Shown piece by piece: positions 10,950 to 38,767 of a stretch of 64,000 nucleotides of DNA. A program made the translations under genes and the position numbers. The notes under the pieces are model-generated. The model made no database searches. It was given only the letters and a program-made list of their open reading frames with translations, and was not told where the DNA came from. Origin of the DNA: a virus; the IMG/VR virus record IMGVR_UViG_3300035070_002905, positions 1-64,000 of that record; one strand, written 5' to 3'. Positions within the stretch are counted from its first letter, which is position 1. Each line of letters opens with the position of its first letter.

Positions 10950-11024
10950 GCGTACTTCGTATAGGGGTTATTACCTCTGCCTTCCAAGCAGATGACGCGG
11001 GTTCGATTCCCGCAGTACGCTCCA
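10950..11024 (+). tRNA. tRNA-Gly (anticodon TCC)
   Basis: Acceptor stem GCGTACT pairs with AGTACGC, TTCGATT T-loop present, anticodon loop CTTCCAA gives TCC, and 3' CCA is encoded. Reads GGA/GGG. Confidence 0.9.
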
Positions 11025-11025
11025 A

Positions 11026-11101
11026 GGCCCCTTAGCTCAGCGGTAAGAGCGCGCGACTCATAATCGTACGGTCCCCAGTTCAAATCTGGGAGGGGCCACC
11101 A
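11026..11101 (+). tRNA. tRNA-Ile2 (anticodon CAT, lysidine type)
   Basis: Anticodon loop CTCATAA gives CAT. The body (GGCCCCTTAGCTCAG start, GACTCATAATCG core, AGGGGCCACCA end) is very like E. coli tRNA-Ile2 rather than a methionine tRNA, so the C34 is probably modified to lysidine by host TilS to read AUA. The outer anticodon stem pair is weak (C-A). Confidence 0.8.
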
Positions 11102-11113
11102 ATAAGGATCTTT

Positions 11114-11290
11114 ATGAGAATCGTAAAGAAGACGAAAGAGTTTATCGTCACGGTGAATAGCAATGGATGCCATCAACGTATTAAACTTGATGAATTAGAC
11201 GAGTATATTAGAAAGCTCGTTGCATCTAAACGAATTGCTCCCGGTACCGTAGACGGTCGCCGAGGAGAATGTCTATGTTCGAAGCCCTAG
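11114..11290 (+). CDS. 58-aa basic protein within tRNA cluster
   Basis: Encodes MRIVKKTKEFIVTVNSNGC... to KP-stop. AAGGA at 11104-11108 precedes the ATG with good spacing. Lys/Arg-rich with a C-terminal CLC; function unknown. It lies between tRNA-Ile2 and tRNA-Arg. Confidence 0.55.
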   Translation: MRIVKKTKEFIVTVNSNGCHQRIKLDELDEYIRKLVASKRIAPGTVDGRRGECLCSKP

Positions 11291-11346
11291 CGTTAATCGC
11301 TTTACTCTGGTTGGTATCAGTTACTATAGCCAGTAAGATGTACTAA
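11275..11346 (+). CDS. 23-aa hydrophobic micro-protein
   Basis: Encodes MFEALALIALLWLVSVTIAS plus KMY. It overlaps the previous ORF by 16 bases, has AGGAG 10 bases upstream (11262-11266), and its TAA overlaps the ATG of the next gene. Almost the whole peptide is one membrane helix. The coupled overlaps on both sides argue that it is translated. Confidence 0.5.
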   Translation: MFEALALIALLWLVSVTIASKMY

Positions 11347-11555
11347 TGAAATACAAGATGCAATTCATGGATGATGAACACGCTGAAAGAGCTTATGACG
11401 AGCTCACTTGTATTAAAGTATTAATGGGATCTGCGATAGCCGTAGACTTCCCGTATAGTTACGGTAACACCGTCAGTGAGATCATCAGTAGACACCGAGG
11501 ATACACCGACCAACTTACCGAACACGATTTAAGCGCCCTTAGCTCAGCTGGATAG
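11346..11555 (+). CDS. 69-aa protein running into tRNA-Arg
   Basis: Encodes MKYKMQFMDDEHAERAYDEL...SSAG. Start is coupled to the upstream stop (TAATG). The last eight codons and the stop lie within tRNA-Arg (11533-11609), so its C-terminus ALSSAG is read from the tRNA acceptor and D-arm sequence. This suggests either truncation by tRNA insertion or deliberate overlap. Function unknown. Confidence 0.55.
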   Translation: MKYKMQFMDDEHAERAYDELTCIKVLMGSAIAVDFPYSYGNTVSEIISRHRGYTDQLTEHDLSALSSAG

Positions 11556-11609
11556 AGCGCATCCCTCCTAAGGATGATGTCGCCAGTTCAACTCTGGCAG
11601 GGTGCACCA
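11533..11609 (+). tRNA. tRNA-Arg (anticodon CCT)
   Basis: Acceptor GCGCCCT pairs with AGGGTGC, anticodon stem CATCC/GGATG with loop CTCCTAA (CCT), T-loop TTCAACT, encoded CCA. Reads the rare AGG codon. Its 5' 23 bases overlap the end of a protein gene. Confidence 0.9.
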
Positions 11610-11776
11610 AATGGCGAGTGCGTGGTCGATCACAAAGTATGACGAAAGGAACAAAGTAGCGTAGGTCCCTCGGGCAGCGAAAGTAACAAAGTAGACGAAA
11701 CGTATCGAGATTCCGCGGCCTTTGCTGTGAGGAATACCATCTAGATCAATAGACTAGTGATACTTACAGCACAAAC
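11610..11776 (+). other. non-coding spacer with imperfect hairpin inside tRNA cluster
   Basis: No ORF with an RBS is visible in these 167 bases. At 11724-11770 GCTGTGAGgaatacc...cTTACAGC forms a long imperfect stem (G-T pairs and bulges) just before tRNA-Lys. It could be a remnant tRNA, a processing signal, or a small RNA. Nothing else recognised. Confidence 0.4.
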
Positions 11777-11851
11777 CGGGGCGTAGCTCAGCGGTAGAGC
11801 AGCTGACTTTTAATCAGTTGGTCGATGGTTCGAATCCATCCGCCCCGACCA
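11777..11851 (+). tRNA. tRNA-Lys (anticodon TTT)
   Basis: Acceptor CGGGGCG/CGCCCCG, anticodon stem CTGA/TCAG with loop CTTTTAA (TTT), GTTCGAAT T-loop, encoded CCA. tRNA-Lys is the target of the PrrC anticodon nuclease, relevant to the RnlA/PseT genes in this window. Confidence 0.92.
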
Positions 11852-11852
11852 T

Positions 11853-11928
11853 CCGAGATTAGCTGAGTTTGGTATAGCGCACCGTTTGGGACGGTGGGAC
11901 GCACGTTCGAGTCGTGCATCTCGGACCA
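11853..11928 (+). tRNA. tRNA-Pro (anticodon TGG)
   Basis: Acceptor CCGAGAT/ATCTCGG, anticodon stem CACCG/CGGTG with loop TTTGGGA (TGG), T-arm GCACGTTCGAGTCGTGC, discriminator A and encoded CCA. Confidence 0.9.
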
Positions 11929-11934
11929 TTTTCT

Positions 11935-12009
11935 AGGGGATTAGCTCAGTTGGTAGAGCAGCGGATTCCAAATCCGTAGGTCAGGCGTTCGAGTCGTCTA
12001 TCCCCTGCC
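11935..12009 (+). tRNA. tRNA-Trp (anticodon CCA), terminal A not encoded
   Basis: Acceptor AGGGGAT/ATCCCCT, anticodon stem CGGAT/ATCCG with loop TCCAAAT region giving CCA. After discriminator G12007 only CC is encoded; the next base (G12010) is the first base of tRNA-Thr. The final A must be added by a CCA enzyme, which the phage itself encodes at 26543. Confidence 0.85.
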
Positions 12010-12085
12010 GCCGTTATAGCTCAGTAGGTAGAGCAGCTCACTTGTAATGAGCAGGTCCCGGGTTCGATTCCTGGTGACGGCACCA
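12010..12085 (+). tRNA. tRNA-Thr (anticodon TGT)
   Basis: Acceptor GCCGTTA/TGACGGC, anticodon loop CTTGTAA (TGT) on stem CTCA/TGAG, T-arm CCGGGTTCGATTCCTGG, encoded CCA. Abuts tRNA-Trp with no spacer. Confidence 0.9.
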
Positions 12086-12086
12086 T

Positions 12087-12161
12087 ATCCCGTTCGTCTA
12101 GTGGTCAGGACACTACCCTTTCACGGTGGTAACACGAGTTCGAATCTCGTACGGGATACCA
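12087..12161 (+). tRNA. tRNA-Glu (anticodon TTC)
   Basis: Acceptor ATCCCGT/ACGGGAT, anticodon stem CTACC/GGTGG with loop CTTTCAC (TTC), T-arm ACGAGTTCGAATCTCGT, encoded CCA. Confidence 0.9.
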
Positions 12162-12162
12162 T

Positions 12163-12237
12163 AGGGGTATCGCCAAGCGGTAAGGCCTCGGCTTTTGATG
12201 CCGATATTCGGTGGTTCGAATCCACCTACCCCTTCCA
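12163..12237 (+). tRNA. tRNA-Gln (anticodon TTG)
   Basis: Acceptor AGGGGTA/TACCCCT, anticodon stem CGGC/GCCG with loop TTTTGAT (TTG), T-arm GGTGGTTCGAATCCACC, discriminator T and encoded CCA. Confidence 0.9.
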
Positions 12238-12322
<85 letters not shown>

Positions 12323-17265: not shown

Positions 17266-18041
17266 GCCTAGCTAAACTTAAGGAAGCCTTTGGGAACGAC
17301 GGCGATGCACCTCTTAGTAGCCTACTTCGCCATAAGCGTTACATGGAGATCTACCCTTTCATCTATATCGAGAAGGGGTTGGCTCGTAAGGAGTTAGAGC
17401 TTAACATGGTCCTCTGTAAGTCTAAGGAAGACCTTGAGTACAGCGAAGAGCATGGCCATATGATGTACGTCGGGTCTGGTCGTCATGAATTCAAAGTGAC
17501 TACCTGTACGGCAGATGATCAGGCCGAGTTCGACGAGTTCGTAGAAGGCTGGTACAATACGGCCGACCTTCCTCGACCTGATCCTATGGTTCCAGTCGTC
17601 CAGGATATCATCGATCTACCGGTACTCAGTACTCGTACGATCGGCGAGGTAGCTATGGCCTTCGACGACGATGTACTATTCGACATTCAGTACTCGGCTA
17701 CGCAGTCGATCTACGAAGAGCATCCTGATGTTAAGATCGAAAAGATCATGCAGTACACTACTGAGTACGGTAAGTACGGCCAGGAAGTCTACCGTCTAGC
17801 TTACTTCGGTAAGGTGTTCGGATTCCTTACTAGCTCTGGTAAATACCTAGATACATACACTGCGTATATTCTAGACGAGCACACTTATAAGTGTTTCTGT
17901 ACGATGCTCGAAAATGAATACTGGGAGAAAGACGAGTGGACTGGTACCGCTGAACTTACTCCCGACTCTCCACTAACATTCTTAAGCGACCAACTGCTAG
18001 ATGCTCTAGCGGAAGGCGACTCAATCGATCAAACTCATTAA
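17262..18041 (+). CDS. hypothetical protein between Prs- and NAMPT-like genes
   Basis: 259 residues, acidic and soluble, starting in an ATGA overlap with the Prs-like gene and ending 10 bases before the NAMPT-like gene. No motif I recognise. Its position inside a NAD-related operon suggests an accessory or regulatory part in that pathway, which is inference from context only. Confidence 0.7.
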   Translation: MSLAKLKEAFGNDGDAPLSSLLRHKRYMEIYPFIYIEKGLARKELELNMVLCKSKEDLEYSEEHGHMMYVGSGRHEFKVTTCTADDQAEFDEFVEGWYNTADLPRPDPMVPVVQDIIDLPVLSTRTIGEVAMAFDDDVLFDIQYSATQSIYEEHPDVKIEKIMQYTTEYGKYGQEVYRLAYFGKVFGFLTSSGKYLDTYTAYILDEHTYKCFCTMLENEYWEKDEWTGTAELTPDSPLTFLSDQLLDALAEGDSIDQTH

Positions 18042-18051
18042 GGAAATCATC

Positions 18052-20058
18052 ATGGAAATTACACTAGAACAGCTACGCGCAAACTACCTAGAAGCAGCAA
18101 TGGTATTCGAAGTACCTGCAGAAGCAATGACTGACTCTTACAAGATCGGTATGTCTATGCTACACGAACTAAGCATCTTCGGTTGCCTGGTAGAGATCGC
18201 TAACTCGTACTCTAACTTCACTCCTCGTAAGAATGCCTACATGGAATTCTGTGAGCTGAGCGATGAGCACATCGTCGTGTACGGTACTCGTGAGAGCTAC
18301 CAGGTGATCGTCGATATGTGGGACCGTACGTTCTTCAAGGTAGACCAGAAGCTGGCTATGAAGCGTCTGCGTCGTCGTACCCGTAACCACTTCGGTTCAA
18401 TTGCAGAGCACAGTAAGTTCCTGCACGATATGAAGTCGCTGCACGACCTAGGCTACCTGCCGCTTGAAGTCCGTGCGATTGACGAAGGTACTAAGTACCC
18501 GATCGGTCTGCCGGTATTCACCGTTAAGGCTACAGTAGACGGCTACGGCTGGTTGGTGAACTTTACCGAGACGTTATCGTCAGGTCTGATCTGGCCGATG
18601 ATCAACACGGCTACTAAGATCGAGCAGTTCTTCCTACAGGCTAAACACTACGGTGAGCTGTCTGCACCTCAGGAAGTAGTTGACATGTGGCTACCTATCT
18701 GTATCCACGAGTTCGGTATGCGCGGCTACCGTGGTCCTCAGGATCAGATCCGTACATCTTCGTGTCATAACCTGTTCTTCCTCGGTTCAGATACGATCGG
18801 TACAATCGACTTCTTCGAGCACTACTACGGCGCCGACTCGGATACCGCTCCGATTGCCGTAAGTGTACGTGCCTCTGAGCATGCAGATATCAGCCGTATG
18901 CTGAGCCTGTTCCGCCATATCGCACAGAAGGCAATTGACGAAGATGCGATTACCCATAAGTGTGTGGCGGTAATGAAGACTGCAGAGGAGCAGGCTAACT
19001 TCAAGATCTCTACTCTAGGAGAAGGAGAGTGCGTTAAGGGTTACCGTGGAGGTTACTTTGAGAATATCGATGAAGATCCTGCAGAGGTCTTCCCGATCCA
19101 TGTCGATCCTCAGGATGTTCTGGATAATACTGAGTTCTACGTGCTGAAATACTTCGTAGATAATTCTACCGGCATCATGTCGTATGTATCTGATACGGAG
19201 AACTACTACCGCCTGCTTAACGAGTACGGTGCGCAACTTAAGGGTGCTATCGAGAACCGTGAAGCTCGTGAAGACGGTCAACCGCCTATCCTCGTGTTCC
19301 GTCCCGATAGCTCTCGCCATACTCCTCTTAACGTAATCTGTGGTTACCAGATCTTCGAGCATATGAGCGATTACTCTAAGGGTGATTACGTTACGTATGA
19401 TAATCGACATGATGATAACATCGTCGTCAAGAATGGTAAAGGCGAGTACTACCTTGCGAAGTTCAGCGGATGGGCTCCGGGCAAGTATCACTACTTGATC
19501 GGTGAACAGATCACTAAAGAAGAAGCGCAGGGTTCACTGGTAAGCCTATGGAATACCTTCGGTGGTGCAGAAGTGGAAACTCCTGCCGGTCTGATGAAGT
19601 TGATTAATCCTGCAGTAGGCTTGATCTACGGCGAGGCTATCAGCCAGAAGCACCAGAAGGAGATCTACGAGCGCATGATCGAGATGGGCTTCTCTGCAGT
19701 TAACGTATTGATGGGCAAGGGTTCTTATGCTTCGCTTGAGAATTCTACACGTGACCTATTCTCTATGTCGTACAAGCAGACGTTCTCTGAAGCGATCATC
19801 GACGGCGAACGCGTTAACCTTGAGCAGCAGAAGACTCCGATGGGAGACATGAGCAAGAAGTCGGCTAAGGGTCTACTATGTGTACCTTACGTAGATCCGC
19901 TACTAGGGTTCGTCTTAGAGCAGGAAGTTAGCGAAGAGCGTGAGCAGGAAGGTTGCTTGACTCTGCTACTGCGCAACGGCGTATTCTACAAGAACCAGAC
20001 GTTGGATGATATCAAAGCCAACTACGCGTCTAACACTTACTACCACCTGGAGAAGTAA
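18052..20058 (+). CDS. nadV: nicotinamide phosphoribosyltransferase-like (NadV/Namat-type)
   Basis: 668 residues. NAMPT-family hallmarks: NSYSNFTPRKNAY near 48 (substrate-binding start), KIEQF after a PMINTATK segment, HEFGMRGYRG near 219, SVRASEHADISRML near 272, FRPDSSRHT near 416, and GLIYGEAIS near 524 followed by a FSAVNVLMGKGSY glycine loop. These enzymes join nicotinamide to PRPP to make NMN. The protein is about 170 residues longer than usual NadV/NAMPT (460-500). In the NARP1 pathway the NAMPT-like enzyme (Namat) joins nicotinamide to ADP-ribose pyrophosphate to give NAD directly. The AAGGA RBS at 18041-18045 and operon with a Prs-like gene support a joint role. Confidence 0.88.
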   Translation: MEITLEQLRANYLEAAMVFEVPAEAMTDSYKIGMSMLHELSIFGCLVEIANSYSNFTPRKNAYMEFCELSDEHIVVYGTRESYQVIVDMWDRTFFKVDQKLAMKRLRRRTRNHFGSIAEHSKFLHDMKSLHDLGYLPLEVRAIDEGTKYPIGLPVFTVKATVDGYGWLVNFTETLSSGLIWPMINTATKIEQFFLQAKHYGELSAPQEVVDMWLPICIHEFGMRGYRGPQDQIRTSSCHNLFFLGSDTIGTIDFFEHYYGADSDTAPIAVSVRASEHADISRMLSLFRHIAQKAIDEDAITHKCVAVMKTAEEQANFKISTLGEGECVKGYRGGYFENIDEDPAEVFPIHVDPQDVLDNTEFYVLKYFVDNSTGIMSYVSDTENYYRLLNEYGAQLKGAIENREAREDGQPPILVFRPDSSRHTPLNVICGYQIFEHMSDYSKGDYVTYDNRHDDNIVVKNGKGEYYLAKFSGWAPGKYHYLIGEQITKEEAQGSLVSLWNTFGGAEVETPAGLMKLINPAVGLIYGEAISQKHQKEIYERMIEMGFSAVNVLMGKGSYASLENSTRDLFSMSYKQTFSEAIIDGERVNLEQQKTPMGDMSKKSAKGLLCVPYVDPLLGFVLEQEVSEEREQEGCLTLLLRNGVFYKNQTLDDIKANYASNTYYHLEK

Positions 20059-26542: not shown

Positions 26543-27775
26543 ATGAAGATATATCTAGTTGGCGGAGCTGTCCGCGACGAGTTGCTTGGCCTGGAGCCTA
26601 AAGACCAAGACTACGTGGTCGTTGGAGCAACACCAGAAGAAATGCTTAACGCAGGCTACAAACAGGTCGGCGCTGAGTTCCCTGTATTCCTACATCCAGA
26701 TAGTGGAGAAGAGTATGCACTTGCAAGAACTGAAGTTAAGAACGGAAATGGGTACCAAGGGTTCAACTGCGCCTTTGGGCCAGAGGTTACTCTCGAAGAA
26801 GATCTCGCACGTCGTGACCTCACGATCAATGCCATGGCTCGAGATGTTATCTCAGGAGAGCTGTATGACCCGTACGGAGGTCAACAAGATCTAGAGGACA
26901 AAGTGCTAAGGCCTACTACAGAAGCCTTCAGAGAGGATCCTGTGCGCGTTCTACGCGTTGCTCGATTCCTTGCTCGATACGATGGCTTCTCGTACAGCGA
27001 TGAGCTATTCGATACGATCGGCAGTATGATTAACTCCGGAGAGCTAGAGCACCTTAAGCCTGAGCGAGTATGGATCGAGACCGAGAAGGCCCTTATGGAA
27101 CCTAAGCCGTCACGCTACTTCAAGTTCCTACGTGGCATGGGGATATTCCCCGAGATCGATAACCTGCAGAAGGTCGAGCAGAGTGAGCGCTGGCATCCCG
27201 AGGGCGACGCCTTTATCCATACGATGATGGTGATCGACGAGGCTGCCCGCCGTGGCTGTGACCTAGAGACTCGCTTCGGCTGTCTGATGCACGACCTAGG
27301 TAAGTGGCCGACATACCAGGAGCGTGGCAATACGCATGGTCATGAGGGTGATGGTGTCGAGCACATCGAAGCCTTCTGCCGTCGCCTGAAGATTCCTAAC
27401 GATCACCGCGAGTTCGCTAAGCTGGTCAGCCGGTATCATACGCATACTCATAAGGCCTTCGAGTTGAAGCCGGCTACCTTGCACGATATGATCGCTGCAG
27501 TTAGTCGTAAGGACTTCTGGTTCGCGCGCTTCCTAGACGTCTGCGTCTGTGATAAGAACGGCCGAGCCGAGCCGGCATGCGATTGGGATTACTTCCAGCC
27601 TGCCTATGTACACGCCTGCGAACACCGTATGCGTCTTACCGATACTAAGCCGATCACCGATCGTATGGCTCCCGGCCCTGCAGTCGGCGAGGCTATTCGC
27701 TCGGCACGCATCGCGTCGATCCGCGGAGTACACAAAGAGTTCTATCAAAGTAAGAATCTTAAGGGAGAGAACTAA
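26543..27775 (+). CDS. cca: CCA-adding enzyme (tRNA nucleotidyltransferase)
   Basis: 410 residues, the length of the E. coli enzyme (412). Nucleotidyltransferase domain: YLVGGAVRDELLG (4-16) and the metal-binding DQD (21-23), RRDLTINAMA near 96-105, YGGQQDLEDKVLR and the EDPVRVLRVARFLAR class II signature near 135. A C-terminal HD domain (CLMHDLGKW near 248) matches proteobacterial Cca. It adds or repairs the 3' CCA of tRNAs, required here because the phage tRNA-Trp gene does not encode the last A. Preceded by AGGAG. Confidence 0.95.
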   Translation: MKIYLVGGAVRDELLGLEPKDQDYVVVGATPEEMLNAGYKQVGAEFPVFLHPDSGEEYALARTEVKNGNGYQGFNCAFGPEVTLEEDLARRDLTINAMARDVISGELYDPYGGQQDLEDKVLRPTTEAFREDPVRVLRVARFLARYDGFSYSDELFDTIGSMINSGELEHLKPERVWIETEKALMEPKPSRYFKFLRGMGIFPEIDNLQKVEQSERWHPEGDAFIHTMMVIDEAARRGCDLETRFGCLMHDLGKWPTYQERGNTHGHEGDGVEHIEAFCRRLKIPNDHREFAKLVSRYHTHTHKAFELKPATLHDMIAAVSRKDFWFARFLDVCVCDKNGRAEPACDWDYFQPAYVHACEHRMRLTDTKPITDRMAPGPAVGEAIRSARIASIRGVHKEFYQSKNLKGEN

Positions 27776-28505: not shown

Positions 28506-28705
28506 TGTCTACTGAAGCACCTATAGATCGAGTGGCCGCCCGAAGGAAGCGTATAGCCGAGCGTTCGGTTGATCTACTTAACGGCGCCGAGGTTAGTCCC
28601 TCGGATCGATGCCTGTACTGTATGAACTACGGGAATTATATAGTTAACACTGATGTGCGATACTGTCGCGAACATATGGAGAAGCGTCATGAAACAAATA
28701 GTTAA
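28505..28705 (+). CDS. small zinc-finger-like protein, 66 aa
   Basis: Basic N-terminus (RVAARRKRIAERS) and C-terminal CLYCMNYGNY...RYCREH (C-x2-C ... C-x2-H). Possibly RNA or DNA binding. It overlaps the RlaP-like gene by 17 bases. Confidence 0.6.
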   Translation: MSTEAPIDRVAARRKRIAERSVDLLNGAEVSPSDRCLYCMNYGNYIVNTDVRYCREHMEKRHETNS

Positions 28706-29729
28706 GCATTATGCAGGGAGCCTGGCATATGGAACGAACCTTCCGACAAGTGATGTGGACTTTCGAGGGATCTACTGTGATCCCCCGCAGGGTATCATTA
28801 CGCCCTGGACCAAGCCTCGTACAGAGGTCTGGAAGGATAAGTCCGAAGAAGATACGGAGTTCTACGAGCTCCACAAGTACATGGGCGGATATATCGACGG
28901 GTCACCGAATATCCTAGAGACTCTCTGGGTTGATCGAGAGGACATCGTCCAGTCTCTTCCTGTGTACGACTACCTACGTGCGCACGCCCCCGATCTGCTC
29001 AGCCGTAAACTCCGCTACACCTTCGGCGGATATGCCCTAGGTCAGATGAAGCGAATCAAAGGCCATAACAAGTGGATTAACAATCCTCAGGAAGAGGCTC
29101 CACCGGTTCGTGCCGATTACTTCAAGTTGATCCAGAACTTCCTCCCGCAGCAGATCTTCGCTAAAGACTTCAGCATCCGTGAGTGTAACGGGCACCATAT
29201 CCTAGTGCCTTACGGTAATGATATCTACGGCGTAGTAGCCTGCCACGGCGGACGCGTCCTGAACGACGACGGTTCTATCCACAAGCTGGACTATAAGAAT
29301 CTCCCGGACGAGATGAAGAAGAAACATCCACAGTTCATCGTTAAGCTGAACGAAGATGTCTTCCAGCACGATCTGGCCAACCATAAGAACTACTGGAAAT
29401 GGAAGAGAGAGCGTAATGAATCACGATCAGACCTCGAAGAGAAACACGGGTACGACACCAAACACGCCATGCACATCGTACGACTTCTTAGAATGGGTGA
29501 GGAAGTTCTTCGGGATGGAGTGGTTAACGTCAAACGACCGGACGCCGCCGAACTACTAGCCATTCGTAATGGCGCTTGGACGTACGAGGAGTTACTCGAA
29601 TGGTCTGAGCATCAGGATAACGAGCTGAATAAGCTTATGCTTACCAGCCCACTCCCCGCTAAGCCTGACTACGAGTTGGCTAAGCGAGTACTAATCAAGG
29701 CAGAGGAGATGTGCCATGAAATTTCTTAG
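28689..29729 (+). CDS. RlaP-like nucleotidyltransferase (COG3541 type)
   Basis: 346 residues from ATG 28689. The N-terminus has the DNA-polymerase-beta-superfamily signature GSLAYGTNLPTSDVDFRG (10-27), where GS and D-x-D bind nucleotide and metal. The rest (GGYIDGSPNILETLWVDRE, KHAMHIVRLLRMGEE) fits the large COG3541/RlaP group. RlaP proteins are predicted to add nucleotides to broken RNA ends in repair systems, which agrees with the nearby ligases and kinases. Activity not demonstrated. Confidence 0.72.
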   Translation: MKQIVKHYAGSLAYGTNLPTSDVDFRGIYCDPPQGIITPWTKPRTEVWKDKSEEDTEFYELHKYMGGYIDGSPNILETLWVDREDIVQSLPVYDYLRAHAPDLLSRKLRYTFGGYALGQMKRIKGHNKWINNPQEEAPPVRADYFKLIQNFLPQQIFAKDFSIRECNGHHILVPYGNDIYGVVACHGGRVLNDDGSIHKLDYKNLPDEMKKKHPQFIVKLNEDVFQHDLANHKNYWKWKRERNESRSDLEEKHGYDTKHAMHIVRLLRMGEEVLRDGVVNVKRPDAAELLAIRNGAWTYEELLEWSEHQDNELNKLMLTSPLPAKPDYELAKRVLIKAEEMCHEIS

Positions 29730-30198: not shown

Positions 30199-30482
30199 TA
30201 ATCCAAATGCCGCAACAGGCTCCTGAGCCGATATTCGATCAGGATGGTAATGAACTGCCGCCGAATATCGCCGAGCAGGAGTTCGTGGAATGGCTGCGAG
30301 GTAAGTTGGATGAATTCATCCCGCACCTCAAAGCTGTCTGCGAGGAAAAGAAGTTATACTTCAAGGAGTTAGGATTCGATCAGATGCAGAATGGTCCAGT
30401 CTTTCAAGTTGAAGATGAAGAGTACGTGATCTACAAAGATGGGTTCACGGTTGGTTGGCGTTATGTAGGGAAAGTAGCATGA
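30195..30482 (+). CDS. hypothetical acidic protein, 95 aa
   Basis: Pro-rich acidic start, helical middle ([21 protein letters not shown]). Its last codons overlap the ATG of nadE, so the two are translationally coupled. No motif recognised. Confidence 0.6.
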
Positions 30483-31291
30483 AACAGCAAATTTTAGCAG
30501 AAATGAAAGTTAAACCAGAGATCCACGTAGACGAAGAAGTACGTAAGCGCGTGGATTTCCTTAAGTACAATCTAACCGAGACGGGTATGAGAACGTTGGT
30601 ACTGGGTATTAGCGGCGGCGTAGACTCCACGGTCTGCGGCAAGTTATGTCAGATGGCCGTCAACGAGCTCGGCAGCGACTACCGCTTCATTGCAGTACGT
30701 CTGCCACACGGCGTCCAGGCCGATGAAGATGATGCTCAGGATGCTCTGAAGTTCATCAACCCGAGCAAGGTCGTTACCATTGACGTCGAGCCTGGTACTT
30801 CAGGTATTCACTTCGCTACCATGAGCGCTCTATGGGCTGCCGGCGAGGAGGGTGTTACTAAGAAGAACATCGACTTCGTTAAGGGTAATGTAAAGGCCCG
30901 CATGCGCATGATCGCCCAGTACGAGATCGCCGGTCTAACCAACGGGCTTGTAGTAGGTACCGATCATTCAGCTGAAGCGGTAGTAGGCTTCTATACCAAG
31001 CACGGCGATGGTGCCTGCGATCTGGCTCCGCTGTTCGGTCTGAATAAGCGTCAGGTTCGTTCGCTGGGCGAGTATCTAGGTGCTCCCGACTACCTATTCA
31101 ATAAGGAGGCTACCGCAGATCTTGAAGAAGATAAAGAGCAGCTTCCCGATGAACAGGCCCTCGGTCTGGACTACGACGAGATCGATGACTTCCTAGAGGG
31201 TCGCGAGGTCTCCGACTCGGCTGACGATACGATCGTCGGCTGGTATCTAACGACGCAGCATAAGCGTCATCCTGCACGAACTCCGGAGTAG
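30479..31291 (+). CDS. nadE: NAD synthetase, ammonia-type
   Basis: 270 residues from ATG 30479, close to E. coli NadE (275). [12 protein letters not shown] (40-51) is the N-type ATP pyrophosphatase P-loop (SGGxDS). [23 protein letters not shown] and [14 protein letters not shown] are strongly diagnostic of NadE, as is [17 protein letters not shown] near the end. It amidates deamido-NAD to NAD. There is no glutaminase domain, so it uses ammonia. With the Prs/NAMPT pair it gives the phage a second entry into NAD synthesis. Confidence 0.93.
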
Positions 31292-31294
31292 ACT

Positions 31295-31927
31295 ATGTAC
31301 AAGAAGTACCCACGTACCTTACACCATCCGATGTCACTATCGGTATCTTCAGATGATAAGATAATCTCGAGCCTAGACGATATGATCGGTCGTGAGTGCT
31401 TCGCCTCTATTAAGATGGACGGTGAGTGTACTACGATCTATCCTAATGCGTACACGCATGCACGCTCTACGGACTCTAAGTACCATCCAAGCCGTACCCA
31501 CCTGCAGTCCTTCGCGGCGAGTATCGCGTACAAGATCCCCGAGGGCCTTCGGGTCTGCGGGGAGAACTGTTATGCCCAGCACAGCCTAGCGTACACCGAC
31601 CTCCGAGATTACTTCCTCGGGTTCAGCGTATGGGACGACGAGAAGGCGCTCTCGCTGGACGATACCCTAGAGCTCTTCGAAGAGCTTGGGGTTACTCCGG
31701 TAGAGATTGTCTGGCGCGGCATACTGACACAAGAGATCATCGACGAGCTATGGGCCGGCGTAGATCCTGAAGTAACTGAAGGCCTGGTCTTCCGCGTAGT
31801 CGACGAGGTTCCTTACGAGGACTTCGGCCGACTGGCGTTTAAGATCGTCCGTGATAACCACGTTCAGACTAATAAACATTGGTCTCACCAAGAGGTAGTA
31901 CCTAATGAACTTGCGAAATCTCGATGA
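31295..31927 (+). CDS. KxDG-type RNA ligase
   Basis: 210 residues. Adenylation motif I ASIKMDGEC puts the nucleophile at Lys40; motif III-like GLRVCGENCYAQHS, then a LGFSVWDD segment, motif IV TEGLVFRV and motif V LAFKIVRDN follow in order. It is a compact nucleotidyltransferase core without a large C-terminal domain, like Rnl2-related ligases next to HD-Pnk in bacteria. It overlaps the HD-Pnk gene by 23 bases, strongly suggesting healing and sealing of the same RNA. Confidence 0.82.
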   Translation: MYKKYPRTLHHPMSLSVSSDDKIISSLDDMIGRECFASIKMDGECTTIYPNAYTHARSTDSKYHPSRTHLQSFAASIAYKIPEGLRVCGENCYAQHSLAYTDLRDYFLGFSVWDDEKALSLDDTLELFEELGVTPVEIVWRGILTQEIIDELWAGVDPEVTEGLVFRVVDEVPYEDFGRLAFKIVRDNHVQTNKHWSHQEVVPNELAKSR

Positions 31928-33020
31928 AGTAATTGAGAAGTACCTGCTGCGATATCCACTGCTAAGACGTATGGAGTACACCGAGCAGGATCCAGTATTC
32001 CACGCCGAGGGTAACGTTAAGATCCACACGCAGATGGTTCTAGACGAAGCCTGGAAGATCATCGACTCCGGCATCCTGACTGACCGAGAGGAGAAGCTAC
32101 TGATCTTCTCTGCGATCTTCCACGATTACGCTAAGTCTATCACTACGACTACCGATGTACGCGGCGGTCGTGAATGCGTAGTATCCCCCGGTCATGAGGA
32201 TGTAGGCGCCGCGCATATTCTACTGCTCCAGGCTCCCGATGAGCTTACTCCCGATGAATGGGTCGACGTAGCCCGTCTGGTTAAGTACCATCAGATGTGC
32301 AAGAAGGCCGTCCGTAAGGAATTTACTCGCGGTCAGTACCTGGAGCTGCAGCGTAATGTAGGCGATATGCACCTGCTGTATCTACTGGAGGTCTGTGATT
32401 TCCGCGGGCGTGACTGTGTGGATATCGAGGAGCAGTTCATGTACCTAGAAGAGTTCTGGGCTCAGTGCTCTGCGTTAGACCTTACTCGTCCGGATGGACT
32501 TACTCCTAAGCAGTATGCCCTAGGATGTACGGCTATGGCTGAAGGTAGAATCTACGACTTGGCCGAGGTGACCAGCCTGCCATTTAACTACGAGGATCGT
32601 CCTGAGGTTACAATCATGTGCGGTCTTCCGGGTTCAGGTAAGAGTACCTACGCAAGTAGCTTCACGGGCACTGTAATCAGCCTAGACGAGATTCGACGAG
32701 CTAACCCTAAGATGGGTAACGATGAAGTCCGTCGCACGGCTATGGACCTCCTGCGAGCTTCTCTGCGTAACAATGAGGAGATCCTCTGGGATGCTACCTG
32801 CTATCGTAAGGACTTCCGACTTAAGGTCCGCGACCTGGCCTGGCAGTACGGAGCGTTCGTACGGATAGTCGTCGTGACTACCGATCTATTCACCTGTATT
32901 ACTAACGATGGGAATCGTCAGGAACCGGTAGGAGCAGAGGTGATCAGCAATCAATATGATCGCTTCCAGATGCCTAGTCAGGACGAGGCAGACGAGCTGA
33001 TTTTCTTCAATAATCAGTAG
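31905..33020 (+). CDS. HD-Pnk fusion: 2',3'-phosphoesterase plus 5'-OH polynucleotide kinase
   Basis: 371 residues. The N-terminal HD domain shows His41, HD at 73-74 (IFHDYAKS), further His near 97 and 129 and D170 region. The C-terminal P-loop kinase has GLPGSGKST (240-248), SLDEIRR, and a lid with WDATCYRKDFR. The same domain order was characterised biochemically in Runella slithyformis HD-Pnk, which heals RNA/DNA ends. Together with the overlapping KxDG ligase it makes a complete end-repair set, separate from the RnlA/PseT set downstream. Confidence 0.82.
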   Translation: MNLRNLDEVIEKYLLRYPLLRRMEYTEQDPVFHAEGNVKIHTQMVLDEAWKIIDSGILTDREEKLLIFSAIFHDYAKSITTTTDVRGGRECVVSPGHEDVGAAHILLLQAPDELTPDEWVDVARLVKYHQMCKKAVRKEFTRGQYLELQRNVGDMHLLYLLEVCDFRGRDCVDIEEQFMYLEEFWAQCSALDLTRPDGLTPKQYALGCTAMAEGRIYDLAEVTSLPFNYEDRPEVTIMCGLPGSGKSTYASSFTGTVISLDEIRRANPKMGNDEVRRTAMDLLRASLRNNEEILWDATCYRKDFRLKVRDLAWQYGAFVRIVVVTTDLFTCITNDGNRQEPVGAEVISNQYDRFQMPSQDEADELIFFNNQ

Positions 33021-33053: not shown

Positions 33054-33212
33054 ATGATTATCCTATTGACATTCATTAGAGCTATCATGACCGATAAAAT
33101 CAACACCCGTACCTTAGGTGATGGCGTTATCTTTGGTATCTGGGTTGCAGGTATGGTCGAGATGGTTATGGAATACACATTACTACTTGGAGTAGCTAGC
33201 CAATGTTCGTAA
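33054..33212 (+). CDS. 52-aa membrane protein
   Basis: Encodes MIILLTFIRAIMTDKINTR... ending VASQCS. Strong AGGAGG RBS 4 bases upstream. Hydrophobic start and a second hydrophobic stretch (VIFGIWVAGMVEMVM). Overlaps the rnlA-like gene by 10 bases. Function unknown. Confidence 0.55.
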   Translation: MIILLTFIRAIMTDKINTRTLGDGVIFGIWVAGMVEMVMEYTLLLGVASQCS

Positions 33213-34366
33213 TCGAATATCTAAACAAACACTCTGGTACCGTAGAGGCCCTAGAGAAGCTCAAGGATGAGCTTGGAATTAAGTACTCTATCAACGAGAA
33301 CTATCCCGAGCTTGTAGTGCTCAACTACTGTCAGATAGATTCTCCTAAGCACCATCCGATTACGCTTGAGTGCCGCTCGCTGGTACTCGAGATGCCGATC
33401 TACAGCCATGCAGCTCCGGCTAATTGCTGTAAAGATTGGACGGTGATATCCTCGGCGTTCGACCGCTTCTTTAATCTGCAGGAAATTGACTGCGGATATA
33501 ACATGACGGAACTCCACTCGTACGATAAGGTGGACGGCTCTCTATGCTGTCTGTTCAACTATCACGGCGAGTGGCTCTACCGTACCCGCTCGATGATCAT
33601 GCCTACTGAGTCTATCTTCGGACACGACTACAGCTGGGGTTGGTTCATCGAGACTTGTCTGGGTTGGTCTATGGACTCGCTCAAACTCGATACGGATTAC
33701 ACGTATATCTTCGAGGTCTGCGGACCGGAGAATCGTGTGGTAACTCGTTACACTGAACGTAAGGCCTATCTACTGGCTGCTCGACATGGTAAGCTACGGC
33801 ACTACATGGCGGGTCATAAGGTAGATCAAGTTGCCCGTGAGCATGACTGGCCTCGACCTAAGCGATATACCTTCGAGTCTGTCGCCGAGATTACAGCTGC
33901 TGCACTGGCGCTACGAGACCTCGAAGAAGGTTACGTGATGTACGATCGTCACGAAGAGCCAGTCGTCAAGTGTAAGAACCCTGCCTATGTTGCAGCCCAT
34001 CACCTACGCGGTGAAGGTCCTAAGACGCCTAAGCAGATTATCAATCTGATCATTATCGGAGAAACCGATGAATACCTAGGAATCTTCCCTGAAGATAAAC
34101 CTAGTTTCGATCCTTATCTAGACGGCTGGGAAGTCCTCTGGAATGAAGTAGGCTCTCTCTGGCCTGTCGTTAAGGATATCGAAGATCACAGAGAGTTCGC
34201 TATCTCTATCAAAGATGCGGAGTGTAAGCATATCCTATTCGGAATGCGCAAAGGTCTAACTGGTCGAGAAGCATTCGATCGTTTCCTGGATACAGGTAAA
34301 CGTCGTCTGGTCGAGACATATGCGAGGAATTATGGACAAGCAGAAAGTACTAGAACAACTACGTGA
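33203..34366 (+). CDS. rnlA: T4 RnlA-like RNA ligase 1
   Basis: 387 residues (T4 Rnl1 374). Motif I SYDKVDGSL gives Lys109 as the adenylated residue; CRSLVLEM (58-65) upstream, RTRSMIMPTES motif Ia/III region, TYIFEVCGPENRVV motif IIIa, EEGYVMYD motif IV and VVKCKNPAYV motif V are all in order. A C-terminal helical domain of about 100 residues fits Rnl1, which specialises in tRNA anticodon-loop nicks. It pairs functionally with the PseT-like enzyme at 37880. Confidence 0.9.
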   Translation: MFVIEYLNKHSGTVEALEKLKDELGIKYSINENYPELVVLNYCQIDSPKHHPITLECRSLVLEMPIYSHAAPANCCKDWTVISSAFDRFFNLQEIDCGYNMTELHSYDKVDGSLCCLFNYHGEWLYRTRSMIMPTESIFGHDYSWGWFIETCLGWSMDSLKLDTDYTYIFEVCGPENRVVTRYTERKAYLLAARHGKLRHYMAGHKVDQVAREHDWPRPKRYTFESVAEITAAALALRDLEEGYVMYDRHEEPVVKCKNPAYVAAHHLRGEGPKTPKQIINLIIIGETDEYLGIFPEDKPSFDPYLDGWEVLWNEVGSLWPVVKDIEDHREFAISIKDAECKHILFGMRKGLTGREAFDRFLDTGKRRLVETYARNYGQAESTRTTT

Positions 34367-34665: not shown

Positions 34666-36045
34666 ATGCAGATCAATCCATTAAATCACCTTGGTAAAAT
34701 CGCACTAGGTCTATTTACGGCTATAGTAGTATTCACTGGTATGGGTTACAACGATTCAGGTGTATCGACACGTGTGCAACAGCCAATGTTCGGTTACAAC
34801 TGGATTACTGAAGAAGGTTACTACTTCAAGCTTCCGCTAGTCAGCCGTGACCGTTCGTACGACCAGATCATTACGGTTGCCGTAACGACTAACGAAGACA
34901 TCTGTAATACTGCATCTGTGTGTATTGCTCCAGATCGTGCAGGTATTCCGTTCGCAGATACTTACCGCATGCAGTTAGAATACCAGATGCGTTTCCGCAT
35001 TCCGGTAATCGAGTCTGGTCTTGACGAGCAGGGTATCCTTAAGGCTATCGGTCTTGAAGAGATGCACGGCGACGTTAAGAGCCTAGAGAACCTGCGTGGT
35101 AACACTCTACTACCATTCGCACAGACTCTGGTAAGCGATACTGCTAACCAAATGCTTGCGACTAAAGTGGCACAGGGTGGCCAGAACGCATTCCGTACTC
35201 GTCTAGCAGATCAGGCTAGTAATGGTATGCTGGTAACTACCGTACAGAAAGTTCCAGTTACAGCTGAAATTGCAGACACTTCAAGTGATCGTGATGCATC
35301 TACTACTAAGATGGGCCAGCAGTTCATCACCCAGGTAGTTGTACATGAAGATGATAAAGGCCTTGCTCTACGTAATCCTACATCTATCTCTGCGTACGGT
35401 GTGACTCTAGTTCCTAACTCTATTCAGATCATTAAGGCTACGCCGGTTGGTCGTCTAGTAACTTACATCGATAACAAGCAGAAGAACATTGCCCTGCAGA
35501 TCGAGCAAGAGGAAACTCAGAAGCTACAACGTCAGAAGGCTAAGACTGCACAGCTTAAAGGTGCTACTGACTTAGTTACTCGTACTAACCAGTTGAACAT
35601 CGAAAAGGCTGAAGCTGTAATCGCCGCTGAGAAGCGTAACGAAGAGGCTGCACTACAGGCCGAGAAAGAGTTGATCGAAGCTAATAAAGTTAAAGACCTG
35701 GCGGTAGTTGACAAGGCTCGTGAACTTGAAATCTCTACGGCTAACCTTGGTATCCAAGAAGCTAACTACAAGTCTACTAAGTTTGAAGCTCAGGCTATCA
35801 AAGAGAAGGGTCTTGCAGAGGCACAGGTTGCTAAAGCTAAACTTGGTGCGAAGAATGCCAACAAAGAGATCTACCTTGCAGAGCTAGACGTTGAGAAGAC
35901 TCGACTAATGGCTGACGCTCTACCTAAGATGCAGATCACTGGTCCTAGCGTAGTAATGGGCGCAGGTGGTAACGGTACTGGTATGGTACAAGATCTACTA
36001 TCTACAAGCTTAGCTAAAGGTCTTCTAGACCCTAAATCTAAGTAA
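34666..36045 (+). CDS. SPFH/band-7 domain membrane protein
   Basis: 459 residues. An N-terminal membrane segment (about 11-28) is followed by a band-7-like beta/alpha domain (YYFKLPLVSRDRSYDQIITVAVTT...; SISAYGVTLVPNSIQIIKATPVG) and a long charged coiled coil (about 270-425) rich in EKAEAVIAAEKRNEEA-type heptads, ending in a Gly-rich tail. Such proteins form ring- or cage-like oligomers on membranes. The gene is flanked by hairpins on both sides and is a stand-alone unit with RBS GAGGAA. Related SPFH proteins are found in other large phages; role unknown, possibly scaffolding at the membrane. Confidence 0.75.
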   Translation: MQINPLNHLGKIALGLFTAIVVFTGMGYNDSGVSTRVQQPMFGYNWITEEGYYFKLPLVSRDRSYDQIITVAVTTNEDICNTASVCIAPDRAGIPFADTYRMQLEYQMRFRIPVIESGLDEQGILKAIGLEEMHGDVKSLENLRGNTLLPFAQTLVSDTANQMLATKVAQGGQNAFRTRLADQASNGMLVTTVQKVPVTAEIADTSSDRDASTTKMGQQFITQVVVHEDDKGLALRNPTSISAYGVTLVPNSIQIIKATPVGRLVTYIDNKQKNIALQIEQEETQKLQRQKAKTAQLKGATDLVTRTNQLNIEKAEAVIAAEKRNEEAALQAEKELIEANKVKDLAVVDKARELEISTANLGIQEANYKSTKFEAQAIKEKGLAEAQVAKAKLGAKNANKEIYLAELDVEKTRLMADALPKMQITGPSVVMGAGGNGTGMVQDLLSTSLAKGLLDPKSK

Positions 36046-36109: not shown

Positions 36110-36982
36110 ATGAATTTTTCTATTGTAGTACCTGGAAACTGTAACGCTACGTGCTCATTCTGTGACTCACACTATATGAGACGTGCACCTGATAACTATC
36201 TAGAGCTTCTCCGTGAGGCTGTAGAATATGCTACCGTAGAGCTAGGTATGCGCGAGTGCTCTATTACCGGCGGAGAGCCGACGATCAGTCCTATGCTACC
36301 AGAGATCCTTGAGATTGCTCGTGAGAGCTTCGAGAAAGTCGTACTGACTACTAACGGTACTCGTCTGGCATCTAATATGGAGTTGATCTGTGAGAATGTA
36401 GATCACGTTAATCTCAGTCGTCATGCCGTAGGGTTCCATGCTAATACTCAAGTATTCCGTACTACTGCTATTCCGGATGATTCAGTTGTCCCCTGCATGA
36501 TTACCGAGTTGAATAAGGCCGGTATAGACGTTACTCTGAACTGTGTCTACGAGGATGACATGGAGGATTCAATAGAATTCCTTCGATACGCTAATACTCT
36601 AGGCGCCAATCGCGTATGCTTCCGTAATGATCATCGTCTGGGTATGGACGAGACTACTCTGGAACGTCGCTGGGCGGACTGGACGGTCATCGAGACGGGT
36701 GGATGTCCTACCTGCCGAAGTTCTACGATCCTAGCGTTCGGTAAGGAGGTTACATTTAAAGCCTCGGTCGAAGAGCCTAGTCGTACAATCGGTAGTGTAT
36801 ATGAGTTAATCTTCCAGCCGGAAGGAAAGCTTACTACGGACTGGGCGGGAGAGATAGAGTACAGTATAGTAGATGCGTCGGATTGGAACTATATACCGAG
36901 CGCCCTGTTCCATGAAAGCGTAGCTGCAGTTACTCGTTCGGGTGGCTGTGGTCGTGTTGAATATAACTCGAGAGGTTGCTAA
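36110..36982 (+). CDS. radical SAM protein (unknown substrate)
   Basis: 290 residues. CNATCSFC (residues 11-18) is the cluster motif CxxxCxxC right at the N-terminus, and SITGGEPTISP near 50 is the SAM-binding GGEP. VLTTNGT and later strands follow a MoaA/NifB-like TIM barrel. C-terminal Cys (GGCPTCRSS near 200, SGGCGRVEYNSRGC at the end) may bind a second cluster or metal. No nearby pathway points to the substrate. Different from the RlmN-like protein, which has the Cys at 282 for methyl transfer. Confidence 0.8.
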   Translation: MNFSIVVPGNCNATCSFCDSHYMRRAPDNYLELLREAVEYATVELGMRECSITGGEPTISPMLPEILEIARESFEKVVLTTNGTRLASNMELICENVDHVNLSRHAVGFHANTQVFRTTAIPDDSVVPCMITELNKAGIDVTLNCVYEDDMEDSIEFLRYANTLGANRVCFRNDHRLGMDETTLERRWADWTVIETGGCPTCRSSTILAFGKEVTFKASVEEPSRTIGSVYELIFQPEGKLTTDWAGEIEYSIVDASDWNYIPSALFHESVAAVTRSGGCGRVEYNSRGC

Positions 36983-37293: not shown

Positions 37294-37883
37294 TTACATT
37301 AACTAAAACTGGCGGAATAATGGTCGGCCATCCTGCAGGTACTCAAATCGTTCCTGCTAATCCGCTTCCCGGCAGAGAGTACGCTATGGATTGCGGCGAG
37401 AAGGTCTTCACCATCCCTTGCGAGAGTAAGGATCCTAGTGATCCGCAGGCGTACGTGTATCTTAAACCTGAGCACTATACAGTGACCAGTCGCTATACCG
37501 AGCAGGTTGAGCGGTGGTCGGACGGCGGTCATTGGATCGAGAAGGACGGAGAGTATATGGATACTTCCGACTGCTTCAATGAGTTACGAGCTCTGGAAAG
37601 CGGCATGCAGCCGTTAATCCCGGTAGTAGCTATCCACGACAGTGACCGATTCAGCGGTTTGTTCTACAGTAAGACTGCGGCACTGGCGTACTTCAATAGA
37701 GTATTCCAGGCGCAAGGTAAGAGCGACCTAGAGTTCCTATCCAGTAGAGATATGGATTCATCTCACGGATGGGCTGGTCAGGCCACCGAGGCTGCCCAAG
37801 TACGATCTACTCGCGTACTGACCGAAGACTCGCTACGAGAAGAAGAGAACATTACGTTAATCGAACAGGGGTTTACAGCATGA
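37290..37883 (+). CDS. hypothetical protein, 197 aa
   Basis: Soluble protein with a beta-rich first half (GREYAMDCGEKVFTIPCESKD) and a helical second half ending TLIEQGFTA. Coupled by 4-base overlaps to both neighbours, including the pseT-like gene. No family recognised. Confidence 0.6.
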   Translation: MITLTKTGGIMVGHPAGTQIVPANPLPGREYAMDCGEKVFTIPCESKDPSDPQAYVYLKPEHYTVTSRYTEQVERWSDGGHWIEKDGEYMDTSDCFNELRALESGMQPLIPVVAIHDSDRFSGLFYSKTAALAYFNRVFQAQGKSDLEFLSSRDMDSSHGWAGQATEAAQVRSTRVLTEDSLREEENITLIEQGFTA

Positions 37884-38767
37884 AAAAACTAGGTATTATT
37901 CTAACGATCGGCATTAGCAACTCAGGTAAGACTACGTTCACGCGTGAGTTCGTTAAAGAGAACCCTATGTACACGGACATCAACCGTGACGATATGCGCG
38001 TGGCATTCTTCTGCGGCGGCGATCAGAGCGAGTATGTCAACTATAAGTTCAGCCAGGGTCGTGAGCAGATGATTACTACGGTAGCTGAGGTACGTGCACG
38101 CTGTGCTATTACTAGCGGCCAGGGCGTGATCATTAGCGATACGAATCTTAACGCTACGACGCGTGATTTCTGGAAGGCATTCGCCGAGGAACATAACGTT
38201 CCTTACGAAGAGAAGATTTTCCCAGTAGATCTGCACGTGGCGCTGGCACGTAACCGCAAGCGTCCTATCACTCTACCGCCTCGCGTAATCCGCCAGCAGT
38301 ACGTAAACTTCCGTAAGTTCATGGGACTTCCGTTCTACGAGCCTAACGAATCTCTACCGGAGGCGGTGATCTGTGATCTAGACGGTACCTTCTGTATCCA
38401 TAATGGACGTACTCCGTTCGAGTATGATAAGGTCTCTACTGATCTACCCGATCAAGACGTCTGGTTCCTACTGGATAGTCTGCGTGATGCCGGTACCGAG
38501 ATCTTATTCTTTACCGGTCGTGAAGATAAAGACGATTGTCGTAAGGATACCTTAGACTGGCTGGCAGAGCGCGGCCATGCTCCTACGGTATTCGAGATGC
38601 GAGAAAGAGGCGACTCTCGACCGGACGTGCAGGTTAAGGAGGAGTTCCTTTGGAAGCATGCAGACGATTATAACATTACGCTGGCGCTGGACGATCGCAA
38701 TCAGGTGGTCGATCTATGGCGTACTCTAGGCATTAAGTGCTGGCAAGTTTCTGAGGGCGATTTCTAA
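37880..38767 (+). CDS. pseT: PseT-like polynucleotide 5'-kinase/3'-phosphatase
   Basis: 295 residues (T4 Pnkp 301) from ATG 37880. The kinase domain has GISNSGKTTF (11-20) and DINRDDMR (33-40, the catalytic Asp region); the lid is near RNRKRP. The C-terminal HAD phosphatase has CDLDGTFCIHNGR (D166 and D168), FFTGRED and ALDDRNQVVDLW. It restores 5'-phosphate and 3'-OH ends at nuclease cuts, so that RnlA can reseal them, as in T4 versus PrrC. Confidence 0.93.
   Translation: MKKLGIILTIGISNSGKTTFTREFVKENPMYTDINRDDMRVAFFCGGDQSEYVNYKFSQGREQMITTVAEVRARCAITSGQGVIISDTNLNATTRDFWKAFAEEHNVPYEEKIFPVDLHVALARNRKRPITLPPRVIRQQYVNFRKFMGLPFYEPNESLPEAVICDLDGTFCIHNGRTPFEYDKVSTDLPDQDVWFLLDSLRDAGTEILFFTGREDKDDCRKDTLDWLAERGHAPTVFEMRERGDSRPDVQVKEEFLWKHADDYNITLALDDRNQVVDLWRTLGIKCWQVSEGDF

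What the first reader, a model, noticed from the sequence alone, without database searches (positions are those of the whole stretch)
31295..33020. Phage-borne HD-Pnk with overlapping minimal ligase
The 23-base overlap and domain order (HD then P-loop kinase) mirror bacterial HD-Pnk/ligase systems rather than T4. The ligase is only 210 aa. The adjacent RlaP-like gene fits the RNA-repair operons in which RlaP was named. As a phage system it could be a distinct counter-defence module.
Basis: partly seen in the sequence, partly recalled or inferred. Interest (0 to 1): 0.7.

Follow-up and report, generated by a model that had tools for sequence, protein, structure and literature searches.

The report
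Phage-borne HD-Pnk and minimal RNA ligase
This probable marine Vibrio phage carries a two-gene kit for mending broken nucleic-acid ends, most likely cut transfer RNAs; the kit is of a type already known from the bacterium Deinococcus and, in part, from other phages, so it is a good example of something known rather than a new kind of system.

Summary
In detail: a 210-aa ATP-dependent ligase (31295-31927) overlaps by 23 nt an HD-then-kinase protein, HD-Pnk (31905-33020), with all catalytic motifs present. The pair is not unique. It is the Deinococcus radiodurans pair DRB0100 (210 aa, 43% identical) and DRB0098 (29%); the HD-Pnk falls in one clade with Deinococcus, a Vibrio megaplasmid, a 381-kb virus and two MAG contigs (support 100/98). 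Of 80 bacterial HD-Pnk loci, 74 have a related ligase within 1.7 kb. Phage HD-Pnk is not new: RM378 has the same domain order and a published 3'-phosphatase. In the nearest isolates, Vibrio phages D181 and D69, the same island (CCA, PTH2-like, RlaP, Rnl1, Pnkp) lacks NadE, this ligase and HD-Pnk, so these look like cargo, and RlaP belongs to the core rather than to the pair. Most likely function: healing and sealing tRNAs cut by host defence, alongside Rnl1/Pnkp. DNA-end repair is a serious rival, because the Deinococcus ligase is reported active only with HD-Pnk and PprA. New member of a known kind.

The parts
31295..31927 (+). minimal (210-aa) Rnl2-type ATP-dependent ligase, DRB0100 type
   Evidence: PF09414 8.8e-24; phrog_34045, phrog_24030; 43% identical to D. 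radiodurans DRB0100; fold closest to T4 Rnl2 NTase domain, Z 15.1
31905..33020 (+). HD-Pnk: N-terminal HD phosphoesterase, C-terminal P-loop polynucleotide kinase, DRB0098 type
30479..31291 (+). NadE, NAD(+) synthase, ends 3 nt before the ligase; likely same operon and same cargo (ATG at 30479; the ORF list gives TTG at 30455)
   Evidence: NF001979 2.1e-113 above cut-off; absent from the syntenic D181 stretch
33203..34366 (+). Rnl1, T4 RNA ligase 1 family: second sealing enzyme, part of the conserved island core
   Evidence: PF09511 9.3e-10, phrog_562 3e-43, T4 Rnl1 2c5u 9.8e-9
37769..38767 (+). T4-type Pnkp (kinase + HAD phosphatase): second healing enzyme, part of the core
   Evidence: PF25109 1.6e-41, phrog_505 5.8e-89
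28653..29729 (+). RlaP nucleotidyltransferase, core gene (start may be 28689)
   Evidence: PF10127 1e-11, phrog_388 3.4e-69; 69% identical in Vibrio phage D181
27775..28260 (+). PTH2-like hydrolase, core gene
   Evidence: phrog_3668 1.1e-32; PTH2 in Pfam only 0.0052, below cut-off
26543..27775 (+). CCA-adding enzyme (tRNA nucleotidyltransferase), core gene
   Evidence: phrog_2244 3.7e-128, PF01743 1.6e-21
18052..20058 (+). NAMPT-like phosphoribosyltransferase, NAD salvage
   Evidence: phrog_448 1.1e-113; 64% identical in D181
10950..12322 (+). array of ten tRNA genes, the only ones in the 172-kb record

Best explanation
A phage-borne copy of the DRB0100/DRB0098-type end-healing-and-sealing pair, carried as cargo (with NadE) inside the phage's tRNA-maintenance island. 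HD-Pnk removes the 2',3'-cyclic or 3'-phosphate left by host ribotoxins and anticodon nucleases and phosphorylates the 5'-OH; the overlapping minimal ligase seals the healed ends, probably in a complex with HD-Pnk, since it lacks the C-terminal domain of T4 Rnl2 and its Deinococcus homologue is reported inactive alone. It works beside the phage's Rnl1/Pnkp, RlaP, CCA enzyme and tRNAs to keep translation going under attack. Shown here: gene identity, intact catalytic motifs, folds, adjacency, relatives, synteny. Inferred: RNA as substrate, dependence of the ligase on HD-Pnk, counter-defence role.
For: Motifs and folds; identity with the Deinococcus pair and one HD-Pnk clade at 100/98; ligase next to HD-Pnk in 74 of 80 bacterial loci and in several viruses; surroundings devoted to tRNA and RNA ends: Rnl1, Pnkp, RlaP, CCA enzyme, PTH2-like, ten tRNAs; the same core island in Vibrio phages without the pair, and Rnl1 + Pnkp together with the pair in virus G021; drLigB reported active only with DRB0098 and PprA (PMC5128194); phage RNA repair reviewed as counter-defence (PMC7824862).
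Against: No activity was measured. The Deinococcus pair is tied to DNA damage (induction by irradiation, loss of DNA-damage tolerance), and DRB0100 sealed no RNA alone (PMC1997131, PMC5128194). The ligase family is common in viruses without an HD-Pnk nearby, so it need not depend on HD-Pnk. Rnl1/Pnkp would seem to make the pair redundant.
Confidence: 0.62

Rival explanations
1. DNA-end repair. As in Deinococcus, HD-Pnk heals 3'-phosphate/5'-OH DNA ends and the ligase seals nicks in phage DNA, for example after attack by host nucleases or DNA damage.
For: DRB0098-0100 operon is induced by irradiation; drLigB reported active as a ligase with DRB0098 and PprA, and its deletion lowers DNA-damage tolerance (PMC1997131, PMC5128194).
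Against: The pair sits in an island of tRNA and RNA-repair genes; the ligase fold is closest to RNA ligases; Pfam family is RNA_ligase. A PprA homologue was not looked for.
Confidence: 0.22
2. Neighbours without partnership. The ligase is one of the common stand-alone viral ligases and HD-Pnk heals ends for Rnl1; their overlap only reflects tight gene packing.
For: Most of the 80 viral loci of the ligase family show no HD-Pnk in the stretch held (up to 8 kb a side); in the Vibrio megaplasmid the two genes lie 11 kb apart; HD-Pnk of Campylobacter phages is near an Rnl1-type ligase instead.
Against: A ligase lies beside HD-Pnk in 74 of 80 bacterial loci, from two deeply split ligase clades, and with overlapping genes in Deinococcus, L106, L107 and L186.
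Confidence: 0.13
3. Signal removal. HD-Pnk mainly clears 2',3'-cyclic phosphates or cyclic nucleotides that act as alarm signals, and the ligase is secondary.
For: Phage enzymes against cyclic-phosphate signals are proposed in PMC7824862; HD domains include phosphodiesterases.
Against: The kinase half and the ligase partner are conserved with the HD half.
Confidence: 0.03

Closest known systems
Deinococcus radiodurans LigB operon DRB0100 (ligase) - DRB0099 (PARG) - DRB0098 (HD-Pnk)
   Same: Ligase 210 aa in both, 43% identical, lysine at position 40; HD-Pnk 29% identical, same domain order; overlapping genes (25-nt PARG/HD-Pnk overlap in D. radiodurans, 4-nt ligase/HD-Pnk overlap in other Deinococcus).
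   Different: No PARG gene between them here; a phage genome; NadE upstream; two other repair sets in the same island.
Rhodothermus phage RM378 PNKP (HD type) with its Rnl1
   Same: Phage gene with HD then kinase, published 5'-kinase and 3'-phosphatase (cited in PMC1997131).
   Different: Distant in sequence; its known ligase is Rnl1-type, 6.5 kb away; no minimal ligase was found.
T4 Rnl1/Pnkp tRNA repair (against PrrC)
   Same: Heal-and-seal logic; this phage has homologues of both enzymes (33203-34366, 37769-38767).
   Different: The pair under study uses an HD phosphoesterase in place of the HAD one, with reversed domain order, and an Rnl2-type minimal ligase.
Island of Vibrio phages D181, D148 and D69
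   Same: Syntenic NAMPT - CCA - PTH2-like - RlaP - Rnl1 - Pnkp; RlaP 69% identical.
   Different: No minimal ligase, HD-Pnk or NadE found in it; Thg1 sits between RlaP and Rnl1; D181 has a separate full-length Rnl2 with a T4_Rnl2_C domain.
Jumbo-phage RNA repair repertoires (Iyer et al. 2021, PMC7824862)
   Same: Rnl1, Rnl2, RlaP, PNK-HAD, HD-like phosphatases, CCA enzymes, tRNAs and NAD salvage described as counter-defence.
   Different: The passages read do not describe an overlapping ligase/HD-Pnk pair.

Membership tests
HD-Pnk | N-terminal HD domain with H...HD...H...H...D metal ligands | tested here: met
   H33, H73-D74, H97, H129, D165 align with (nearly) invariant columns of 60 relatives; HD part superposes on an HD tRNA-processing enzyme, Z 17.9
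HD-Pnk | C-terminal P-loop polynucleotide kinase with Walker A, D-x-x-R and lid arginine | tested here: met
   GLPGSGKST, D261, R264, R338; C. thermocellum PNK Z 19.5
HD-Pnk | 2',3'-phosphoesterase and 5'-OH kinase activity | not testable with these tools
   needs purified protein
DRB0100/DRB0098-type pair | ligase of about 210 aa beside an HD-Pnk of the Deinococcus clade | tested here: met
DRB0100/DRB0098-type pair | PARG (DRB0099) gene between ligase and HD-Pnk, as in D. radiodurans | tested here: not met
   genes overlap with nothing between; KNUC1210 and QL22 lack it too, so it does not define the pair
Rnl2-type RNA ligase | nucleotidyltransferase motifs I, Ia, III, IV, V | tested here: met
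   K40-x-D-G, R57, E90, E162-G, K183 invariant in the family alignment; T4 Rnl2 NTase Z 15.1
Rnl2-type RNA ligase | C-terminal T4_Rnl2_C domain of T4 Rnl2 | tested here: not met
   protein ends 27 residues after the motif V lysine (K183), no such Pfam hit, model aligns to the NTase domain only; so 'Rnl2-type NTase', not a canonical Rnl2
RlaP + ligase RNA-repair operon | RlaP domain protein in the same island | tested here: met
   28653-29729, PF10127 1e-11
RlaP + ligase RNA-repair operon | RlaP consistently linked to this ligase/HD-Pnk pair | tested here: not met
   RlaP (E<1e-10) near 3 of 80 bacterial HD-Pnk loci; in related phages it keeps company with the CCA and PTH2-like genes without the pair. 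RlaP and HD-Pnk do share a genome in a few others, e.g. G011

The most novel reading that the evidence does not exclude
The phage runs two parallel, non-redundant healing-and-sealing systems (Rnl1/Pnkp and minimal Rnl2/HD-Pnk, again together in the 381-kb virus G021), and the second is a split enzyme in which HD-Pnk supplies what the C-terminal-less ligase lacks, so that sealing happens only on ends HD-Pnk has just healed.
Probability: 0.2. Interest if true: 0.55.

Novelty: new member of a known kind. Interest (0 to 1): 0.3.

Why it matters
The substrate of the Deinococcus LigB/HD-Pnk pair looks unsettled in the papers I could read: no DNA or RNA joining by DRB0100 alone was found in 2007 (PMC1997131), and a later review reports ligase activity only in a complex with DRB0098 and PprA (PMC5128194). 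A phage copy set among tRNA-repair genes, without PARG, gives a simple two-protein system in which to ask whether the native job is RNA or DNA, and whether HD-Pnk switches the ligase on. The comparison with D181 and D69 also suggests that phage tRNA-repair islands have a stable core and exchangeable repair cargo.

Tried and rejected
Pairing unique to this phage: rejected. Simple capture of the common bacterial operon: rejected, because most bacterial HD-Pnk loci pair with a different, deeply split ligase clade. 'Virus-specific ligase with partner swap', my first reading of the ligase tree: withdrawn after Deinococcus, Vibrio and Rhodobacter plasmid ligases of the same type turned up and the AU test did not reject one clade for the paired ligases (p 0.45). 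A single-sequence viral scan with HD-Pnk found nothing; profile scans did. phmmer of the ligase against PDB found nothing; the fold search did. No DNA-level match of the two stretches tested (29-36 kb, 40-64 kb) to any phage record. The HD-Pnk profile hit at 26543-27775 is the CCA enzyme, drawn in through its HD domain. TROVE search of this genome was negative. PADLOC finds nothing in the repair genes; the radical SAM protein at 36110 resembles pVip (1.6e-13) but scores far below NCBI's viperin cut-off (43 of 180 bits). The J Bacteriol papers on Runella and Deinococcus HD-Pnk are not held.

Full report
What is there. The window is bases 1-64000 of a 172,110-base IMG/VR virus record. At 31295-31927 and 31905-33020 (+) lie a 210-aa ligase and a 371-aa HD-Pnk, overlapping by 23 nt in different frames, with a Shine-Dalgarno-like AAGAGG before the second start. 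The ligase matches Pfam RNA_ligase (8.8e-24) and two phage families; HD-Pnk matches AAA_33, weakly HD, and phrog_6931, a phage family of unknown function. Conserved residues of both active sites are present. Both AlphaFold models are confident: HD-Pnk pLDDT 91.8, kinase part closest to C. thermocellum polynucleotide kinase (Z 19.5) and HD part to a tRNA-processing HD enzyme (Z 17.9); ligase pLDDT 90.4, closest to the NTase domain of T4 Rnl2 (Z 15.1). The C-terminal domain of T4 Rnl2 is absent.

NadE ends 3 nt before the ligase (above cut-off for NF001979). Downstream of HD-Pnk are a T4 Rnl1-type ligase (33203-34366) and a T4-type kinase-HAD phosphatase, Pnkp (37769-38767). Upstream are a CCA-adding enzyme, a PTH2-like hydrolase, RlaP, NAMPT, PRPP synthetase and ten tRNAs, the only tRNAs in the record. 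So the phage holds two healing-and-sealing sets.

Relatives of the pair. In 80 bacterial HD-Pnk loci taken by similarity, 74 have a related ligase within 1.7 kb, 65 of them on the same strand. The set is the 80 best of 212 hits, so the fraction is for relatives of this protein, not for all bacteria. Among viruses a ligase of this superfamily and HD-Pnk are adjacent in the window, LR756500/L012 (ligase fused to an HNH domain), L013, L189, L186/L187 and, with HD and kinase as two genes, L063; in L059 RlaP, Rnl1, the Rnl2-type ligase and HD-Pnk lie within 9 kb. Campylobacter Fletcherviruses carry HD-Pnk with an Rnl1-type ligase 1-2 kb away, often annotated as poly(A) polymerase. A Lysinibacillus phage has the domains in reverse order, kinase then HD, next to RlaP.

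Closest known system. Plasmid searches gave the answer: D. radiodurans MP1 carries ligase DRB0100 (210 aa, 43% identical), PARG DRB0099 and HD-Pnk DRB0098 (29%) in overlapping series; Deinococcus KNUC1210 and QL22 have ligase and HD-Pnk directly adjacent with a 4-nt overlap. In a careful tree the window HD-Pnk is sister to that of a 0.9-Mb Vibrio replicon (99/93) inside a nine-row clade with Deinococcus, L106/L107 and L186/L187 (100/98). The ligases of these pairs sit in a large, mostly viral clade, deeply split from the ligases of most bacterial HD-Pnk loci; whether they form one group inside it is unresolved (AU p 0.45).

Literature. DRB0098 has 5'-kinase activity; DRB0100 adenylylates itself on K40 but sealed nothing alone; the same paper cites a phage RM378 PNKP with an HD 3'-phosphatase (PMC1997131). 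RM378's protein has the same HD-kinase order as the window. A review states that drLigB is active only with DRB0098 and PprA and that its loss lowers DNA-damage tolerance (PMC5128194). PARG of the operon reverses ADP-ribosylation of RNA/DNA ends (PMC11833690). Jumbo-phage RNA repair with Rnl1, Rnl2, RlaP, PNK-HAD and HD-like phosphatases is reviewed as counter-defence in PMC7824862. The J Bacteriol papers on HD-Pnk biochemistry were not available here; their content is known to me only from memory and citations.

Synteny. The nearest isolated phages by RlaP are Vibrio phages D181, D148 and D69 (68-69%); a protein encoded at 60744-62633 also matches Vibrio phages best. A Vibrio-like host is thus likely but not shown. 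D181 has the island in the same order: NAMPT, CCA, PTH2-like, RlaP, Rnl1, Pnkp, phosphoesterase (64, 60, 43, 69, 47, 49, 48% identity), but no NadE, minimal ligase or HD-Pnk in it, and Thg1 between RlaP and Rnl1. The 95-aa ORF before NadE has a weak match (27%, 2.5e-5) to a gene shortly before D181's Rnl1, which would place NadE-ligase-HD-Pnk as one insertion between two orthologues; that boundary is weakly supported. CCA, PTH2-like and RlaP also sit together in PVP-SE1 and Vibrio phage 496E54-1, and CCA with RlaP in KLEP7. RlaP therefore belongs to the core, not to the pair.

Dual systems elsewhere. The 381-kb virus G021, which holds the closest viral HD-Pnk, also has Rnl1 and a full T4-type Pnkp. 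The 33 records searched were chosen by me, so no frequency follows.

Mechanism. Best supported: HD-Pnk heals, the minimal ligase seals, probably as a complex, on RNA ends made by host ribotoxins. Gene identity, motifs, fold, adjacency and kinship are shown; substrate, complex and defence role are inferred. DNA-end repair is the main rival and is better backed by Deinococcus genetics; genome context favours RNA. Overall this is a new member of a known kind.

Noticed in passing
L003 14176-16659, 6692-7966, 17855-18634 (huge phage LR756500); L106 10427-12688: A major-vault-like protein (MVP_shoulder 4.5e-27, Vault_3) lies about 1 kb after HNH-ligase/HD-Pnk in a huge phage, with a PARP and a Macro domain protein nearby; a Kofleriaceae MAG contig also has a vault-like gene near its ligase/HD-Pnk pair. 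Vault protein plus PARP recalls eukaryotic vaults; no TROVE protein was found in the phage.
   Followed up: partly
L011 3108-4987 (Lysinibacillus phage LC76P1): Domain order reversed: kinase then HD in one protein, next to an RlaP-like gene.
   Followed up: partly
window 34666-36045: SPFH/band-7-like protein (phrog_11908 9.6e-61, unknown function) between Rnl1 and Pnkp; no match in the syntenic D181 stretch.
   Followed up: no
window 36110-36982: Radical SAM protein with weak resemblance to MoaA and prokaryotic viperin, below curated cut-offs.
   Followed up: no
window 16264-20058 and 30479-31291: PRPP synthetase, NAMPT and NadE: NAD-supply genes, which may counter host NAD-depleting defences.
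   Followed up: partly
Campylobacter Fletchervirus records, e.g. L010 4923-5963; RM378 L197 48060-49145: HD-Pnk is annotated as poly(A) polymerase in several public records, probably because of its HD domain.
   Followed up: no
L206 4213-4851 and 15977-17194 (Vibrio vulnificus 0.9-Mb replicon): Closest HD-Pnk relative by tree, with the minimal ligase 11 kb away, in a large Vibrio replicon also seen in V. parahaemolyticus.
   Followed up: partly
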